Source: a virus. From it: 28,326 bases of DNA. The stretch lies in IMG/VR virus record IMGVR_UViG_3300037961_002238, positions 1 to 28,326 of that record. One strand, given 5' to 3'. Under the pieces are notes generated by a model that did not search any database, was not told where the DNA came from, and saw only the letters and a list, made by a program, of their open reading frames with translations. The translations under genes were made by a program, and so were the position numbers. Shown piece by piece: positions 1-28,326 of this stretch; position 1 is the stretch's first letter; each line of letters opens with the position of its first letter.

Positions 1-132
1 GATATGTTGATGTTGCAGGTGATGGTTATGTTACTAACTGTCAAAATCAAGAAGTAATGAGATTAGGCTGGATTAATGAAAGAGGGGCATGGGACTATTA
101 CAATTTTAGAGGTGGTTTTGTAGAAACATTGA
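1..132. repeat. Terminal overlap, copy 1 (circular contig join)
   Basis: The first 132 bases match the last 132 bases of the window except at positions 30 (G here, A at 28224) and 82 (G here, A at 28276). The tail gene beginning at 27123 stays in frame across the join, so this is the same locus sequenced twice. Both differences change one residue conservatively (Val/Ile and Arg/Lys). Inference: assembly overlap of a circular or circularly permuted genome with strain variation, rather than a true terminal repeat. Confidence 0.9.
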
Positions 133-4215: not shown

Positions 4216-5798
4216 ATATAAAAGTCACAGGAGCAGACAAGGGAACTAAGGCTGTAAAGGACTTAGGCAAAGCTGCAAAAAAAACCACTAAAGAAACTAA
4301 GGACATGCAAACAGGTGTTATGGACGCATGGGGTGAAGTTAATATATTAGGTACTAGCTTAGGTTCAGTAGGAAAAGCGTTTACAGCAACAACTGGGTCA
4401 GCTAAGTTAATGTTTTCTTCTATTAAAATTGGTTTAGTATCTACAGGTATAGGTGCGTTTGTCGTTGTTTTAGGGTCTATGGTTCAGTATTTTAAGGATA
4501 ATGAGGAGGGAGCTAGTAAATTTAGAGAAATTACTTCACAAGTAGGCGTTGTGTTAGGTAATGTAACAGACATTATTTCCGATTTTGGTGGTGCTATTAT
4601 AAAGTTATTTTCAAGAGATTTAAAAGGCTTTAAAGATGGAATAAAATCTGCCATAGATGGTGTTAAAAACTTTGGTGAAACTACCAAACAAGAAATGGAA
4701 ATGGCTAGAAATCTTGAGAAAGAGAGAGCTGAACTTATTATATTTGAAAGAGATGCTAACGTATCAAAAGCTAAATCTGAAGCTGAAATAATGAAATTAA
4801 GAATGAAAGCTAGAGATGAAGAAGCTTTTACAAATGAACAACGTCTATCATTTATGCGACAGGCTAATAAATTAGCAGATGAACAGTTACAAAAAGATTT
4901 ACATATAGCCCAAAAGAAATTAGAATTTCAAAAAATCGAAAATAGTTATAGTAAATCAAGCACAGAAAACTTAAATAAAGAAGCAGAATTAGAAGCCCAA
5001 TTATTTAATATACAAAGATCAAATTTCTCTGAAAGAAAGAGAATGAAGTCTGAAGAACAGGCGATAGTTAAAAGAATAAATGCAGAATCAGAAAAGGCAA
5101 CAAAAGACGAAGAAGCAAGAATTAAGAAAGATGAAGAATTAAAACAAAAAGAACTAGAGACTTTAAGGTTATCAGGAATGACCGAACAAGAAATAGCGAT
5201 TGAACAAGCTACTACAAAATACAATAAGTTACTAGAGTTAGCAAATAAATATGGTCAAGACAGTGCACATCTTACAAAACGACATGAAGAAACAATATTA
5301 GCAATAAATAAAAAATATAATAAAGAAGCAGTAAAAGACGAAGAAGTTACCCAAGAAACTAAAAATAAAATGATAATGAGTAGCATGTCAGCTTTGACAG
5401 GAGCTTTAGAAAAAGATTCGGCAGCGGCTAAAGGTATAGCGGTAGCACAAGCATTAATGAATACTTATCAAGGTATTACGGCAGCGTTAGCTATGAAGCC
5501 TTCAGGGCCTTGGAATTTTGTTCAAGCTGCTGCAATAGGAGTACAAGGTTTTGCTGCTGTAAAGAATATAATGAAAACTAATCCTACAAACCCTTCACCA
5601 GACACAAGTGGTGTAGATGGTGGGGGCGATAATGCTCCGTCCCCTACAGGTATTGGTGGTGAATCTTTAATACCTTCACAACTTACTGAACAGCTTTCTG
5701 GTACTGGAACACAGCCTGTCCAAGCGTATGTTGTAGAAACAGATATTAGTGAGAGTCAAGCACTACAACAAGAACTAGATTTACAGACAACATTATAA
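4194..5798 (+). CDS. Tail tape measure protein (534 aa)
   Basis: The protein sets tail length and occupies the tail lumen. The N-terminus MAEEVTVNIKVTGADKGTKA followed by Lys/Thr-rich helices is a familiar tape-measure opening. A hydrophobic segment lies around residues 75-105, a long charged coiled coil around 160-400 (E/K/A-rich), and a second Ala/Gly-rich hydrophobic segment around 410-460. The C-terminal tail is Gly/Ser/Pro/Asp-rich. There is no peptidoglycan hydrolase motif. At the customary 1.5 angstrom per residue it would predict a tail of about 80 nm (inference). It is smaller than most siphophage tape measures. It follows the large tail genes and precedes the capsid block. Confidence 0.85.
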   Translation: MAEEVTVNIKVTGADKGTKAVKDLGKAAKKTTKETKDMQTGVMDAWGEVNILGTSLGSVGKAFTATTGSAKLMFSSIKIGLVSTGIGAFVVVLGSMVQYFKDNEEGASKFREITSQVGVVLGNVTDIISDFGGAIIKLFSRDLKGFKDGIKSAIDGVKNFGETTKQEMEMARNLEKERAELIIFERDANVSKAKSEAEIMKLRMKARDEEAFTNEQRLSFMRQANKLADEQLQKDLHIAQKKLEFQKIENSYSKSSTENLNKEAELEAQLFNIQRSNFSERKRMKSEEQAIVKRINAESEKATKDEEARIKKDEELKQKELETLRLSGMTEQEIAIEQATTKYNKLLELANKYGQDSAHLTKRHEETILAINKKYNKEAVKDEEVTQETKNKMIMSSMSALTGALEKDSAAAKGIAVAQALMNTYQGITAALAMKPSGPWNFVQAAAIGVQGFAAVKNIMKTNPTNPSPDTSGVDGGGDNAPSPTGIGGESLIPSQLTEQLSGTGTQPVQAYVVETDISESQALQQELDLQTTL

Positions 5799-19870: not shown

Positions 19871-19983
19871 TAGAAGTATTAAAACATTTATTTGGTATTT
19901 GTGGAGAGCCACATATTAACATATTTACTATACTAATGACAACACCAATAATATCATATATAATTTATAAATTTTACAGATGA
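19867..19983 (+). CDS. Small membrane protein (38 aa)
   Basis: A short gene with ATGA overlaps at both ends (19867-19870 and 19980-19983). It encodes MIEVLKHLFGICGEPH followed by a hydrophobic segment (about 18-34) and the basic end YKFYR. I associate the FGICGEPH segment with small proteins found at the same spot in related phages. One membrane helix; function unknown. Confidence 0.6.
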   Translation: MIEVLKHLFGICGEPHINIFTILMTTPIISYIIYKFYR

Positions 19984-20366
19984 AAAAAAGGACATTAAAT
20001 CAAAACACAGAATATCAATTGCAAATAGCAGTGTGCAAGTATTTAGATCTACAAGGATATTTATATTGTGCTACAATGGGTGGACAATATCAAAAATATT
20101 ATAGCCAACGAAACAAAGCAAAAGCGACAGGTTATAAAAAAGGAATACCTGATATAATTATTTATGAACCAATTAAAAAGCTAGATTCAGATGAATATTT
20201 TCATGGACTAGCTATTGAATTAAAAGTTGGTTATAATAAACCTACAGAACATCAATGGTATTGGATAGAAATGTTAAGACAAAAAGATTATATTGCTGAA
20301 GTGTGTTATGATTTAGATACTGCAATTGATGTAATAGAAACATATATGGGCGGATTTATAAAATAA
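19980..20366 (+). CDS. VRR-NUC nuclease (128 aa)
   Basis: A PD-(D/E)XK nuclease of the VRR-NUC family. Motifs: GIPD (55-58, catalytic Asp58), AIELKVG (78-84, Glu80 and Lys82), and KPTEHQWYWIEMLRQKDYIA (87-106) with Gln92. The N-terminal NTEYQLQIAVCKYL helix is typical. Stand-alone phage members act on branched DNA, so a role in recombination or resolving replication intermediates before packaging is likely. It is the last gene before the structured locus at 20365. Confidence 0.85.
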   Translation: MKKRTLNQNTEYQLQIAVCKYLDLQGYLYCATMGGQYQKYYSQRNKAKATGYKKGIPDIIIYEPIKKLDSDEYFHGLAIELKVGYNKPTEHQWYWIEMLRQKDYIAEVCYDLDTAIDVIETYMGGFIK

Positions 20367-20395
20367 AAAAAATTAAAAAAAATTAAAAAAAATTT
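20365..20395. other. Phased A-tracts (predicted curved DNA)
   Basis: Three A8 runs begin at 20365, 20375 and 20385, separated by TT, giving an exact 10-base period. A-tracts in phase with the helical turn bend DNA. They lie directly upstream of a TATATTTATA element and the tandem hairpins, a position suited to an UP-like activator of that promoter. Confidence 0.7.
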
Positions 20396-20420
20396 AATAA
20401 AAAGTATATATCTTAAAAAA

Positions 20421-20436
20421 TATTTGTATATTTATA
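20421..20436 (+). promoter_or_regulatory. Putative promoter of the tandem-hairpin RNA
   Basis: TATTTG (20421-20426) runs into TATATTTATA (20427-20436), identical to the downstream half of the composite element seen before structural genes, but without an AAACAAA upstream. With the phased A-tracts 25-55 bases upstream it would start a transcript at or just before the first hairpin. Weak on sequence alone. Confidence 0.35.
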
Positions 20437-20543
20437 TTAATAATCAATCAATTTAGTACTTATTAGGAACTTTGCTTCTGATTATTAAAAGAGATCAACA
20501 ATTTAGTACTTTTTAGGAACTTTGCTTAGATCTCTTTTTTTTT
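20437..20543 (+). ncRNA. Tandem stem-loop RNA with conserved loops
   Basis: There are two hairpins in a row. Hairpin 1 has a perfect 10-bp stem (20437-20446 with 20479-20488) and a 32-base loop (20447-20478). Hairpin 2 has a perfect 10-bp stem (20487-20496 with 20529-20538) and a 32-base loop (20497-20528). The loops agree at 29 of 32 positions (core ATTTAGTACTT and TAGGAACTTTGCTT). The stems, TTAATAATCA and AAAAGAGATC, are unrelated yet each pairs fully, which argues for selection on structure. Within the loop CAA/TTG and AGT/ACT could pair further. A T9 run ends the second hairpin. No ORF explains it. It may be a small RNA, a regulatory leader, or a protein- or polymerase-binding element. 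Confidence 0.7.
20487..20543 (+). terminator. Intrinsic terminator formed by hairpin 2
   Basis: The AAAAGAGATC/GATCTCTTTT stem is followed by an uninterrupted T run (20535-20543). This could end both the early operon and the small RNA. The 32-base loop is much larger than in the three other terminators of the genome, so termination may be conditional. Confidence 0.55.
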
Positions 20544-20586
20544 GGATATATTTTAATAGAATAGGTGAGATAATTAAAATAATACA

Positions 20587-20952
20587 ATGAAAGTAAAGCC
20601 TACATTCTTTAATAGTAGAAATGAAAGATTGCATTGGGATTATGAAGATACTAACAATTGGTTGTTTAAAATAATCTATAGAATAGGTACAACATGTAGA
20701 GAACAAAATTATATATTGAGGGACTTAAAACAAGACAAAAACATCATTGGATATATTTATAAAAAAATACACCAAAAATTTGATGTCATTGAAATTGAAG
20801 TCGATAGGTTCACAAAAACAGAATACGATATGGCTAAAAACATTGGAGTACCAACAGTATTAGATTGTGTTAAAACTAAACCAGTATATAGAAAAAAACT
20901 ACGAAAAGCTAAAACAAATAGCCGAAAAAATTACCAGTTGCAAGAAGTATGA
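20587..20952 (+). CDS. Hypothetical protein overlapping the sigma-like gene (121 aa)
   Basis: This is the first gene after the tandem hairpins. It encodes a basic protein (FFNSRNERLHWDYEDTNNWL, YKKIHQKFDVIEIEV) with a Lys/Arg-rich tail. No known motif; mixed alpha/beta, no membrane segment. Its last 86 bases overlap the next gene in another frame, unusually long for this genome. The end may be flexible, since that overlap codes for a low-complexity basic tail. Confidence 0.55.
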   Translation: MKVKPTFFNSRNERLHWDYEDTNNWLFKIIYRIGTTCREQNYILRDLKQDKNIIGYIYKKIHQKFDVIEIEVDRFTKTEYDMAKNIGVPTVLDCVKTKPVYRKKLRKAKTNSRKNYQLQEV

Positions 20953-22214: not shown

Positions 22215-22698
22215 AAAATTAGAACCAGCAACGTACAATCCAAGACAGATAAGTACAAAGCAATATAAAGATTTAAAAGAATCAATTACTAAATTTGGAA
22301 TAGTTGATCCTTTAATAGTAAATAAAAACTCCTATACAATAGTTGGTGGTCATCAACGCTATAAAATATGTAAGGAATTAGGTTATAAAGAAATAGGCTG
22401 TATAATATTAGATTTAAATACAGAACAAGAGAGAGAACTTAATATCAGACTTAACAAAAATACTGGTGATTTTGATATGGATATTTTAGCTAATGAATTT
22501 GACATAGAGGAACTTACAGACTGGGGGTTTAAGGAAATTGACTTAGGTCTTAATATAGATAAAATACCTGATGATTTATCAGATAAATTAGAATTACAAT
22601 ATAAATTAGAAGTTGATGTTACATCTGAAAAAGAACAGGAAGAATTATATAATGAATTAACTAAAAAAGGATATATATGCCGAATTTTAACATTGTAA
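22189..22698 (+). CDS. ParB/Srx-fold protein (169 aa)
   Basis: The ParB N-terminal domain fills the first 90 residues: YNPRQIS (16-22), SITKFGIVDPLIVN, and GGHQRY (53-58), the nucleotide-binding core. The tail LNIRLNKNTGDFDMDILANE then EFDIEELTDWGF is the usual partner segment in phage ParB-like proteins linked to DNA modification. There is no ParB HTH, so it is not a plasmid-partition ParB. It overlaps the ABC/GNAT gene by 22 bases, indicating coupled translation and joint action. Confidence 0.82.
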   Translation: MELEKIKIEKLEPATYNPRQISTKQYKDLKESITKFGIVDPLIVNKNSYTIVGGHQRYKICKELGYKEIGCIILDLNTEQERELNIRLNKNTGDFDMDILANEFDIEELTDWGFKEIDLGLNIDKIPDDLSDKLELQYKLEVDVTSEKEQEELYNELTKKGYICRILTL

Positions 22699-23753
22699 AA
22701 GAAGTAAAGCCTAAAAAAAGCTTTAGAGTGTCTTCTGTAATAGGTAAGTTTGATTTACAGACTGAACATATAAAAGAAGAATTTACAGGTCAAATAGATT
22801 TAGATAGTAATTGGCAAATAGGAATAATTGTTGGTAGTAGTGGAAGCGGTAAAACAACAATAGCAAAAGAATTATTTCCTGATAGTTATATTACAGACTT
22901 TAAATATAATGCTGAAACTATTTTAGATGATATGCCTGAAGATAAGAGTGTAGATGAAATAACAAGAACTTTTAATAGTGTTGGTTTTTCATCGCCACCA
23001 AGTTGGTTAAAACCATATTCAGTATTATCTAATGGTCAAAAGATGCGAGTTGACTTAGCTAATGGATTATTGCAAGACAATAAATTAATGGTTTTTGATG
23101 AATTTACAAGCGTTGTAGACAGGAATGTAGCACAGATAGGAAGTTATGCAGTTCAAAAGGCAATACGAAAAACAAAAAGAAAATTTATTGCTGTTAGCTG
23201 TCATAATGATATAGTAGATTGGCTATTGCCTGATTGGATATTTAATACTGATTCTATGACCTTTCAAAAACTTGAAGGGCAAAAAAAAAATAGACCAAAA
23301 ATTAAATTTGAAATATACAATACAAGAGATAAAACAATTTGGAAAATGTTTGCTAAACATCACTATTTAAGTCATTCACATAATAACGCTGCTAATGTTT
23401 ATGTAGCATTTGTAAATCAACAATTAGCAGGGTTTATAAGTATATTACATTTTCCACACGCAAAAGTAAAAAACATAAAAAGGGTACATAGACTTGTAGT
23501 TATGCCTGATTTTCAAGGAATTGGTGTTGGTGTTAGATTATTAGAATATATAGGTAAAAAATATATCAATAATAAATATAGATATAGAATTACAACATCA
23601 GCACCAAGTTTAATAAATTACTTTAAAAATAACATTAATTGGCTTTGTTCAAGTTATGGTAGAAAAAAAAATCACGGTGGTACATTAAAGGCTGAAAAGT
23701 TTGGTAGTGAAAATAGAATAACTACAAGTTGGGAGTATAAATTAACGGAATAA
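22677..23753 (+). CDS. ABC-ATPase/GNAT acetyltransferase fusion (358 aa)
   Basis: Residues about 45-200 form an ABC-type ATPase: Walker A GSSGSGKTT (53-61), signature LSNGQ (117-121), Walker B KLMVFDE (136-142) and switch His176 in SCHND. There is no transmembrane part. Residues about 207-358 form a GNAT acyltransferase: MFAKHHYLSHSHN, HRLVVMPDFQGIGVGVRLLE with the acyl-CoA loop QGIGVG (280-285), and TTSAPSLINYF. GNAT enzymes such as Mu Mom modify DNA bases, so with the overlapping ParB-like gene this may be a DNA-modifying unit. The small-molecule or protein substrate alternative remains open. Confidence 0.8.
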   Translation: MPNFNIVKEVKPKKSFRVSSVIGKFDLQTEHIKEEFTGQIDLDSNWQIGIIVGSSGSGKTTIAKELFPDSYITDFKYNAETILDDMPEDKSVDEITRTFNSVGFSSPPSWLKPYSVLSNGQKMRVDLANGLLQDNKLMVFDEFTSVVDRNVAQIGSYAVQKAIRKTKRKFIAVSCHNDIVDWLLPDWIFNTDSMTFQKLEGQKKNRPKIKFEIYNTRDKTIWKMFAKHHYLSHSHNNAANVYVAFVNQQLAGFISILHFPHAKVKNIKRVHRLVVMPDFQGIGVGVRLLEYIGKKYINNKYRYRITTSAPSLINYFKNNINWLCSSYGRKKNHGGTLKAEKFGSENRITTSWEYKLTE

Positions 23754-27122: not shown

Positions 27123-28326
27123 ATGGCTACAATAAGAATAATGCAAATACCAACGGAAACTGGAACTTATACAGGAACTAATACTTTTGATGAGTGCTTA
27201 CCTTCTAACTACTGGCCAATAGCACCTGTAACAGTAAGAATAGATGATGATTTGTCATCATTTTATAAAGTTAAATATATACTCAAAATATATAAAGATA
27301 GTGTATCAGTATCAAATCAGTTAATGACATTAAAGCAAAGAACAAACAACAATTCTTCAACTACAAATCAAGTAGCTATTTTTGACATAAAAGATGTTGT
27401 TAATACACAGCTTAAATTCACTAATAATGATTCTAATAATACTTCATATACAGTACATAAAATAGGTTCTAACGATGTAGATAAATTATTTTCTAAAAAT
27501 AATGGAACAATAAAAACTATTGTAGTAGTAGCTACATGGGAAAGGGCTACATCAGCAACAGCAGCACCAGAAGAACAAACAGGAGATACTGTTCAAATGA
27601 CAATGTATTTTAGTCCAGCTACATTTAGACTATTTCAAATTGTTAATGAAGATATAAACCCATTAAATAAATACTTTATAAATGATTCTATAAGCAAAGC
27701 CTTAACAAATGTAGGTATGCAATATGACACTAGAATTAGAAATGCTCCTGAAGGTGGTACTGGTATATTTGGAACTAAGTTAATAGGTAATATTAATTAC
27801 GTTTCAGAAAAGTTTTGTTATCATACCTTAGGCTTTTTAAATAAAACTGGGTGGGGTTCTGATGGTCAATATATTTCATTACAATATTATAACAAAGATG
27901 GTTCAACAAATGGAAGTCTATATACTATACAAAATAACTCATCACAAGGAGGTGTAGCCCCTACTTCTGCTACAGATGATGAGTCGTACATGTTATTTGT
28001 AGGTGTTGGCACAGCCAACTTACAAACTTATACAGGTGCATGTTTTAAGGATGGAGTATCAACAACAAATTTTGATGGACAACCTTCCGAAATGGGTGAC
28101 TGGGCTTATTATAGAGTGCGTTTTTGTAATAGTAGTGATGGCACAGGTTTTAAATCTACACTATATTATTTTGTAAAAGATACTACAATTAAAAGATATG
28201 TTGATGTTGCAGGTGATGGTTATATTACTAACTGTCAAAATCAAGAAGTAATGAGATTAGGCTGGATTAATGAAAAAGGGGCATGGGACTATTACAATTT
28301 TAGAGGTGGTTTTGTAGAAACATTGA
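27123..28326 (+). CDS. Distal tail structural protein, N-terminal part (continues at 1-494)
   Basis: The gene opens at ATG 27123 and remains open to the window end. It continues in the same frame at the start of the window to the stop at 492-494, for a total of about 521 residues. The N-terminal 130 residues are beta-rich (TVRIDDDLSSFYKVKYILKI). The centre has Gly/Ser/Thr-rich strands (FGTKLIGNINYVSEKFCYHT), and the segment at the join is RLGWINEKGAWDYYNFRGG. No enzyme motif. It is probably part of the tail tip or baseplate, like the following 1179-residue protein. Confidence 0.75.
   Translation, partial: MATIRIMQIPTETGTYTGTNTFDECLPSNYWPIAPVTVRIDDDLSSFYKVKYILKIYKDSVSVSNQLMTLKQRTNNNSSTTNQVAIFDIKDVVNTQLKFTNNDSNNTSYTVHKIGSNDVDKLFSKNNGTIKTIVVVATWERATSATAAPEEQTGDTVQMTMYFSPATFRLFQIVNEDINPLNKYFINDSISKALTNVGMQYDTRIRNAPEGGTGIFGTKLIGNINYVSEKFCYHTLGFLNKTGWGSDGQYISLQYYNKDGSTNGSLYTIQNNSSQGGVAPTSATDDESYMLFVGVGTANLQTYTGACFKDGVSTTNFDGQPSEMGDWAYYRVRFCNSSDGTGFKSTLYYFVKDTTIKRYVDVAGDGYITNCQNQEVMRLGWINEKGAWDYYNFRGGFVETL
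28195..28326. repeat. Terminal overlap, copy 2 (circular contig join)
   Basis: Second copy of the 132-base sequence at 1-132, differing at 28224 and 28276 only. The tail gene is continuous through either copy. The differences point to two closely related genomes in the sampled population. Confidence 0.9.

What the first reader, a model, noticed from the sequence alone, without database searches (positions are those of the whole stretch)
20365..20543. Compact RNA-like locus: phased A-tracts plus tandem hairpins with conserved loops and different stems
Seen directly: two hairpins, each with a perfect 10-bp stem and a 32-base loop. The loops agree at 29 of 32 positions, while the stems (TTAATAATCA and AAAAGAGATC) share no clear similarity yet both pair completely. 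That is the internal signature of selection on structure in the stems and on sequence in the loops. Upstream are three A8 tracts with an exact 10-base period and a TATATTTATA element; downstream is T9. The whole looks like a self-contained small RNA gene of about 100 nt. Possible roles: a small RNA acting on host or phage, a pair of protein-binding sites, or an antiterminator RNA analogous to the tandem put hairpins of phage HK022. I know no named RNA family with this loop.
Basis: partly seen in the sequence, partly recalled or inferred. Interest (0 to 1): 0.88.

Follow-up and report, generated by a model that had tools for sequence, protein, structure and literature searches.

The report
Phage small-RNA cassette with twin hairpins
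A phage, probably of Flavobacteria-like hosts, carries a self-contained gene for a roughly 110-nucleotide RNA made of two hairpins with the same structured head on different stems; two related phages carry versions at another genome position, so it is probably a new interchangeable RNA add-on gene, and we guess that it soaks up a host or phage RNA-binding protein.

Summary
Two hairpins at 20437-20538 have perfect 10-bp stems of unrelated sequence and 32-nt loops identical at 29/32. They share bases 20487-20488, so both stems cannot be complete at once. The locus is an insertion between two genes that abut in the closest relative (L004). It reads as a transcription unit: phased A-tracts, a Bacteroidota -7-like box, two hairpins, T9. 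A third copy of the loop lies on a terminator hairpin in related phage L052, after terL, with two compensatory stem changes and one (A-U to G-C) inside the "loop". The loop is therefore probably folded: CRA/UYG pairs plus AGUA...GAA, resembling the bulged-G (sarcin-ricin) module. A third phage, L038, carries a different RNA at the same post-terL place, with similar A-tracts, the same T9-N3-TATATTT end and a diverged core (p=0.009). No other convincing copy was found in viral, genome, phage or plasmid collections, and no Rfam family matches. Best explanation: an exchangeable RNA moron whose twin structured motifs bind a protein in trans, by analogy with two-motif type III/AbiF antitoxin RNAs but without a toxin gene, perhaps as a decoy. 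The RNA gene is well supported; the target is inference.

The parts
20369..20581 (+). Inserted cassette between the VRR-NUC gene and the next gene; window up to 20368 and from 20582 on aligns to the gene-gene junction of L004
   Evidence: blastn window vs L004: alignments end at 20368 and resume at 20582, adjacent in L004; L005, L012, L024 also have the two genes abutting
20365..20392 (+). Three A8 tracts at 10-base period, at about -66 to -39 of the predicted start: UP-element-like / curved DNA; the first tract begins inside the stop codon of the VRR-NUC gene
   Evidence: L038 has a similar TAAAATA8GTA7G...TTTAAT block before its RNA
20419..20426 (+). Predicted -7 box AATATTTG (7/8 of TAnnTTTG); start predicted at 20431. 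No good -33 TTG is present
   Evidence: sequence; box at -12 to -5 in Flavobacterium psychrophilum, PMC9723704
20427..20436 (+). TATATTTATA element; same TATATTTAT box as upstream of three structural genes of this phage. Alternative -7 box, but then the start would fall inside stem 1
20437..20488 (+). Hairpin 1: 10-bp stem TTAATAATCA/TGATTATTAA around core copy 1 (29-nt repeat 20449-20477)
20487..20538 (+). Hairpin 2: 10-bp stem AAAAGAGATC/GATCTCTTTT around core copy 2 (29-nt repeat 20499-20527); also serves as intrinsic terminator stem; homologous to the L052 hairpin at about 4597-4645
20499..20527 (+). Core (copy 2; copy 1 at 20449-20477): CAA-UUU-AGUA-CU-UNUU-AG-GAA-CU-UUG-CUU. CAA/UUG pairs (CGA/UCG in L052); AGUA/GAA fits the bulged-G (loop E / sarcin-ricin) module
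   Evidence: the module itself is inferred from sequence
20535..20543 (+). T9 run: intrinsic terminator tail; predicted RNA 20431 to about 20543
   Evidence: same T9 after the RNAs of L052 and L038
20547..20554 (+). TATATTTT box 3 nt after T9, followed by AATA; same T9-N3-TATATTTN-AATA in L052 and L038. Possible restart promoter for the downstream genes (inferred)
19980..20366 (+). VRR-NUC domain gene immediately upstream (flank, not part of the cassette)
   Evidence: Pfam PF08774 E=3e-7
20587..20952 (+). 121-aa gene immediately downstream (flank); present in relatives that lack the RNA, no toxin-family match, so not a cognate toxin

Best explanation
The locus is an 'RNA moron': a complete, separately transcribed small-RNA gene dropped between two genes of a phage of Bacteroidota. 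An A-tract-activated promoter makes an RNA from about 20431 to 20543 with two hairpins. Each presents the same folded ~29-nt head (3-bp CRA/UYG stem, AGUA...GAA bulged-G-like module, 2-bp cap with a UNUU loop) on a stem whose sequence is free as long as it pairs; the second hairpin also terminates transcription. The unit belongs to a set of exchangeable cassettes with similar ends that sit at different intergenic sites in related phages (window: after VRR-NUC; L052 and L038: after terL). Most likely action (inferred): the twin heads bind an RNA-binding protein in trans, two sites per RNA, in the way that two-motif antitoxin RNAs (AbiF RNA, TenpI/CptI) bind their dimeric or oligomeric toxins. 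As the phage carries no recognisable partner gene, the likeliest use is as a decoy or antitoxin mimic against a host effector, or a sponge for a host RNA-binding protein. Shown: anatomy, insertion, homologous copy with compensatory changes. Inferred: transcription, fold of the head, protein binding, target.
For: Anatomy and chance tests. Clean insertion relative to L004/L005. Third hairpin with the same core in L052 at about 4597-4645, in another gene interval; homologous stem with A-U to G-C and C-G to U-A double changes and one G-C to G-U, and inside the core CAA/UUG to CGA/UCG. The two core differences between copy 2 and L052 are exactly those two paired positions, and the only difference between copies 1 and 2 within the 29 nt is an apical loop base. 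Cassette ends shared by window, L052 and L038: among 37 relative records T8-N2..4-TATATTT occurs only in these three and in one unrelated promoter of a fourth. Diverged core 13 nt into the L038 RNA, p=0.009. Bulged-G modules are often protein-binding (PMC7247131). The C. difficile phage AbiF antitoxin RNA has two 33/35-nt motifs 19 nt apart in a 98-132-nt transcript and works in trans (PMC12373285); here two 29-nt motifs lie 21 nt apart in ~113 nt. Phage antitoxin mimicry has a precedent, pseudo-ToxI of phage PhiTE (PMC5449768).
Against: Only three phages carry it, so covariation rests on few events, and the shuffling control on three sequences is not decisive (172/500). No transcript data. 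No good -33 promoter element in the window. Rfam abiF and ToxI models do not match at E<=10. No host or plasmid source of the core was found, so the proposed partner is hypothetical. L052 has a single head, so two sites per RNA is not essential. L038's head does not keep the closing pairs.
Confidence: 0.4

Rival explanations
1. Trans-acting antisense sRNA: the conserved core base-pairs with a phage or host mRNA or stable RNA, and the stems merely display it.
For: Loop sequence more conserved than stems; sRNAs often display seeds in loops; two copies would double the dose.
Against: No complementarity to this phage above shuffled cores: best exact match 9 nt (shuffles mostly 9-12), best duplex with any start region -16.0 against a shuffled mean of -18.2 kcal/mol. 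Conservation extends over the whole 29 nt and includes a compensatory pair, which fits a fold better than an antisense seed. Host RNAs were not tested.
Confidence: 0.2
2. Cis-acting transcription element: tandem hairpins with T9 terminate or attenuate read-through of the operon, with the conserved head as the docking site of a host or phage factor; the TATATTTT box restarts transcription downstream.
For: Hairpin 2 and the L052 hairpin each end in T9; TATATTTN follows 3 nt later in all three cassettes; the unit sits inside an operon.
Against: Closest relatives need no such element at this junction; a terminator does not need a conserved 29-nt head; hairpin 1 has no T run; the cassettes begin with a promoter-like block of their own.
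Confidence: 0.2
3. DNA-level element: the hairpins act as single-stranded DNA, for example a recombination or transposition site (REP/IS200-like, dif-like) that inserts itself in different intervals.
For: Same core at different genome positions; near-perfect palindromic arms; phages differ by presence or absence.
Against: Stems, which such enzymes usually read, are the variable part; there is a promoter-like block and T9; only one insertion in this genome; compensatory changes fit RNA and DNA hairpins alike, but the G-U pair in L052 is a wobble better tolerated in RNA.
Confidence: 0.07
4. Put-like antiterminator RNA of the HK022 kind acting on the RNA polymerase that makes it.
For: Two tandem stem-loops near a promoter, about 70-100 nt.
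Against: Put lies in a leader and suppresses terminators downstream (PMC9378689); here the element itself ends in a T9 terminator, and L052 has a single hairpin at the RNA's 3' end.
Confidence: 0.04

Closest known systems
AbiF antitoxin RNA (abiF motif, Rfam RF03085; RCd22 of a C. difficile prophage)
   Same: Short independent RNA with two copies of a conserved hairpin motif about 20 nt apart; stem sequence free where pairing is kept; phage-borne (PMC12373285)
   Different: No Rfam match, no AbiF gene next to it, and here the second motif hairpin is itself the terminator
Type III antitoxins ToxI / TenpI / CptI and the pseudo-ToxI of phage PhiTE
   Same: Tandem repeat RNA (TenpI: 50-nt unit, 2.1 copies; here 50-nt spacing, 2 copies); a phage without the toxin can carry a mimic (PMC5449768, PMC12373285)
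   Different: ToxI repeats are pseudoknots without long variable stems; no Rfam match; no toxin gene here
HK022 putL/putR antiterminator RNAs
   Same: Two stem-loops near a promoter of a phage
   Different: Cis-acting leader without terminator; different shape and size (PMC9378689)
Bulged-G module (loop E, sarcin-ricin loop of 23S rRNA: AGUACGAGAGGA)
   Same: UAGUAC...AGGA order with closing C-G pair: UAGUAC-UUNUU-AGGAAC here
   Different: Apical UNUU capped by C-G/U-A instead of GAGA; fold not tested experimentally
Phage protein morons
   Same: Extra transcription unit with own promoter and terminator between genes that abut in relatives
   Different: The product appears to be RNA, not protein

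Membership tests
Type III toxin-antitoxin antitoxin RNA (ToxI/TenpI/CptI) or abiF RNA | Tandem repeated RNA motif, two or more copies | tested here: met
   Two 29-nt copies at 50-nt spacing, 97% identical
Type III toxin-antitoxin antitoxin RNA (ToxI/TenpI/CptI) or abiF RNA | Cognate toxin gene directly downstream | tested here: not met
   Downstream 121-aa gene has no Pfam, PADLOC or PHROGs match and occurs in relatives lacking the RNA
Type III toxin-antitoxin antitoxin RNA (ToxI/TenpI/CptI) or abiF RNA | Match to the family's covariance model | tested here: not met
   Rfam scan of the 261-bp locus lists only a chance-level Yfr10 hit (E=3.6) up to E=10
Type III toxin-antitoxin antitoxin RNA (ToxI/TenpI/CptI) or abiF RNA | RNA binds and neutralises a protein | not testable with these tools
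   Needs binding and toxicity assays
HK022 put antiterminator | Leader RNA that suppresses downstream terminators and is not itself terminated | tested here: not met
   Second hairpin ends in T9; the L052 copy is a 3'-terminal terminator hairpin; read-through itself not assayed
Bulged-G (sarcin-ricin / loop E) module | AGUA opposite GAA, closed by a Watson-Crick pair | tested here: met
   All three close copies read AGUA-C...G-GAA; sequence signature only, three-dimensional fold not tested. L038 keeps AGUA and GAA but not the closing pair
Any Rfam family | Score above the gathering cut-off | tested here: not met
   No match in the whole window
Phage moron | Insert with own promoter and terminator between genes adjacent in relatives | tested here: met
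   Insert 20369-20581 vs L004; promoter-like block and T9 by sequence; transcription not measured

The most novel reading that the evidence does not exclude
A new class of phage 'RNA cassettes': small structured-RNA genes with common ends (phased A-tract promoter, T9-N3-TATATTT restart) and exchangeable contents at hypervariable gene junctions. One content, a twin bulged-G-headed RNA, is an orphan antitoxin-like decoy that shields the phage from an RNA-binding host defence protein.
Probability: 0.2. Interest if true: 0.82.

Novelty: new variant of a known kind. Interest (0 to 1): 0.58.

Why it matters
Accessory genes of phages are looked for almost only as proteins. An RNA-only moron that moves between phages, keeps a 29-nt structured head and changes its stems would be a compact example of an accessory RNA gene, and would give a handle (the head) to fish out a host or phage RNA-binding protein in Bacteroidota, where few RNA-binding regulators and few anti-defence RNAs are known.

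Tried and rejected
Rfam scans of window, locus and relatives: nothing for this RNA. tRNA/tmRNA: none in the window or cassettes. Phage and plasmid records: no match for the window's locus, only chance-level matches for L052 and L038 units. Covariance model over 48 relative records: only the three known hairpins score strongly; the next, E 0.01, is a chance alignment with a shortened loop. An ORF in the L052 cassette was considered and set aside: no start codon, and the stretch folds (z -2.4). The L052 5' domain occurs in no other contig by an exact 18-mer. Antisense to the phage's own mRNAs: not above chance. The post-terL inserts of other relatives are mostly genes such as DNA methylases, not RNAs.

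Full report
OBSERVATION. The sequence is as described. Hairpin 1 runs 20437-20488 and hairpin 2 runs 20487-20538; each has ten Watson-Crick pairs, and the 32-nt loops agree at 29 positions. The two hairpins share two bases (20487-20488), so the fold gives 9 bp for the first stem. Shuffling the flanks around the repeated core yields such stems with p=0.002 and 0.00025, and arms of copy 1 and copy 2 do not pair across copies. The A8 tracts start at 20365, 20375 and 20385; T9 is 20535-20543. The core occurs nowhere else in the genome.

IT IS AN INSERTION. In the closest relative with this region (L004, terL 95% identical) the VRR-NUC gene and the 121-aa gene overlap directly. The DNA alignment stops at window 20368 and resumes at 20582. 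L005, L012 and L024 also have no spacer there. The unit therefore looks like a moron.

TRANSCRIPTION SIGNALS (inferred from sequence). The Flavobacterium -7 box TAnnTTTG sits at -12 to -5 (PMC9723704). AATATTTG at 20419-20426 would start RNA at 20431, six bases before hairpin 1, with the A-tracts at about -66 to -39, the place of an UP element. TATATTTAT at 20427, which also precedes three structural genes, would start RNA inside stem 1 and is less likely. No good -33 element is present. The RNA would be about 113 nt.

A THIRD COPY. L052 (related phage, terL 78%) has, between terL and the next gene, a promoter-like block (TTG-N20-TATATTTA), a ~160-nt RNA-like stretch, and at its end AAAGGGATTA-[core]-TAATCCTTTT-T5. 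It aligns with hairpin 2 of the window, including ~20 nt beyond T9. Between them two stem pairs changed on both sides (A-U to G-C, C-G to U-A) and one became G-U (my reading of the alignment, with the 3' arm of L052 shifted by one base). Within the core the only two differences are partners: CAA/UUG became CGA/UCG. So the 'loop' is probably itself folded. The formal shuffle control on three sequences is weak (172/500), but sliding the partners by one column drops pairing from 100% to 40-53%.

SHAPE OF THE HEAD. Read as CRA-UUU-AGUA-CU-UNUU-AG-GAA-CU-UYG, the head carries the AGUA/GAA signature of the bulged-G module, as in the sarcin-ricin loop AGUACGAGAGGA (PMC12737465). Such modules often bind proteins (PMC7247131). 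This is a sequence signature, not a solved fold; the thermodynamic fold uses AGU/ACU pairs instead.

A SET OF CASSETTES. L038, another relative, holds after terL a 279-nt RNA-like unit with a consensus promoter TTTG-N21-TATATTTG, strong folding (z -3.4), a terminator with T9, and no Rfam match. Its A-tract block resembles the window's (TAAAATA8[GT]TA7-8...TTTAAT). All three units end T9-N3-TATATTTN-AATA; among 37 relative records this end occurs in these three and in one unrelated promoter. Its RNA begins with AACAATTTTAGTAGTAGTTGGAACTT, similar to the core (p=0.009 by shuffling), flanked by CACG/CGTG. I take L038 as a probable, not proven, member. The final TATATTTN may restart transcription of the downstream gene (inferred).

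DISTRIBUTION. Scans of IMG/VR with patterns of decreasing stringency found L052 and L038 and otherwise chance matches. GTDB genomes, GenBank phages and PLSDB plasmids gave no convincing copy. A covariance model over 48 relative records scored only the three close copies strongly. The RNA is thus rare and patchy in the collections, as accessory genes are.

HOW IT MAY WORK. The core shows no pairing with the phage's own messages above chance. What is conserved is a whole structured head on free stems, twice in one RNA. The nearest working parallel that I could check is the AbiF antitoxin RNA of a C. difficile prophage: two conserved 33/35-nt motifs 19 nt apart in a 98-132-nt RNA; mutations that keep the stem are tolerated, mutations that break it are not; it binds the toxin in trans (PMC12373285). 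TenpI antitoxins repeat a 50-nt unit 2.1 times (same source). Here the cognate toxin gene is absent, which would fit a mimic, as with pseudo-ToxI of phage PhiTE (PMC5449768). It is not a member of those families (no Rfam match, no toxin); 'works like' is the claim, at about 0.4 for trans protein binding in the broad sense.

VERDICT. Real, ordered and probably functional RNA gene; a new variant of phage accessory RNA. The partner is unknown and the evolutionary sample is three phages.

Noticed in passing
L038:11206-11579: A 279-nt RNA-like gene after terL with consensus Bacteroidota promoter, strong fold (z -3.4), T9 terminator, no Rfam match: a separate candidate structured RNA.
   Followed up: partly
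L005:4285-4350 and 4625-4690: Two pistol ribozymes in tandem (62.8 bits each), each just before a short ORF beginning MKNQL; a processed polycistron or duplicated gene unit.
   Followed up: no
window 5815, 9231, 25261; also before the gene after terL in about 60 relatives: AAACAAA-N9..11-TTATATTTATAAAAA motif just before structural genes: a probable phage promoter or start signal.
   Followed up: partly
window 22677-23753: ABC-type ATPase fused to a GNAT acetyltransferase (phrog_11143), after a ParB-like gene; not seen in the fetched loci of 80 relatives, where other genes stand; weak match to mad3.
   Followed up: no
window 1-132 and 28195-28326: Contig ends repeat each other at 98.5% (2 mismatches): circular or circularly permuted genome assembled across strain variation.
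   Followed up: yes
L052:4490-4594: The 5' part of the L052 RNA folds into a domain of its own (z -2.4) and has no match elsewhere in IMG/VR by an exact 18-mer.
   Followed up: partly
L049:1060-1132, L063:9633-9705: tRNA-Gly (acc) genes upstream of terL in two relatives.
   Followed up: no
L323:4835-4871: An ordinary terminator hairpin whose loop AACTTTGCTTCT resembles the 3' part of the core; probably chance.
   Followed up: no
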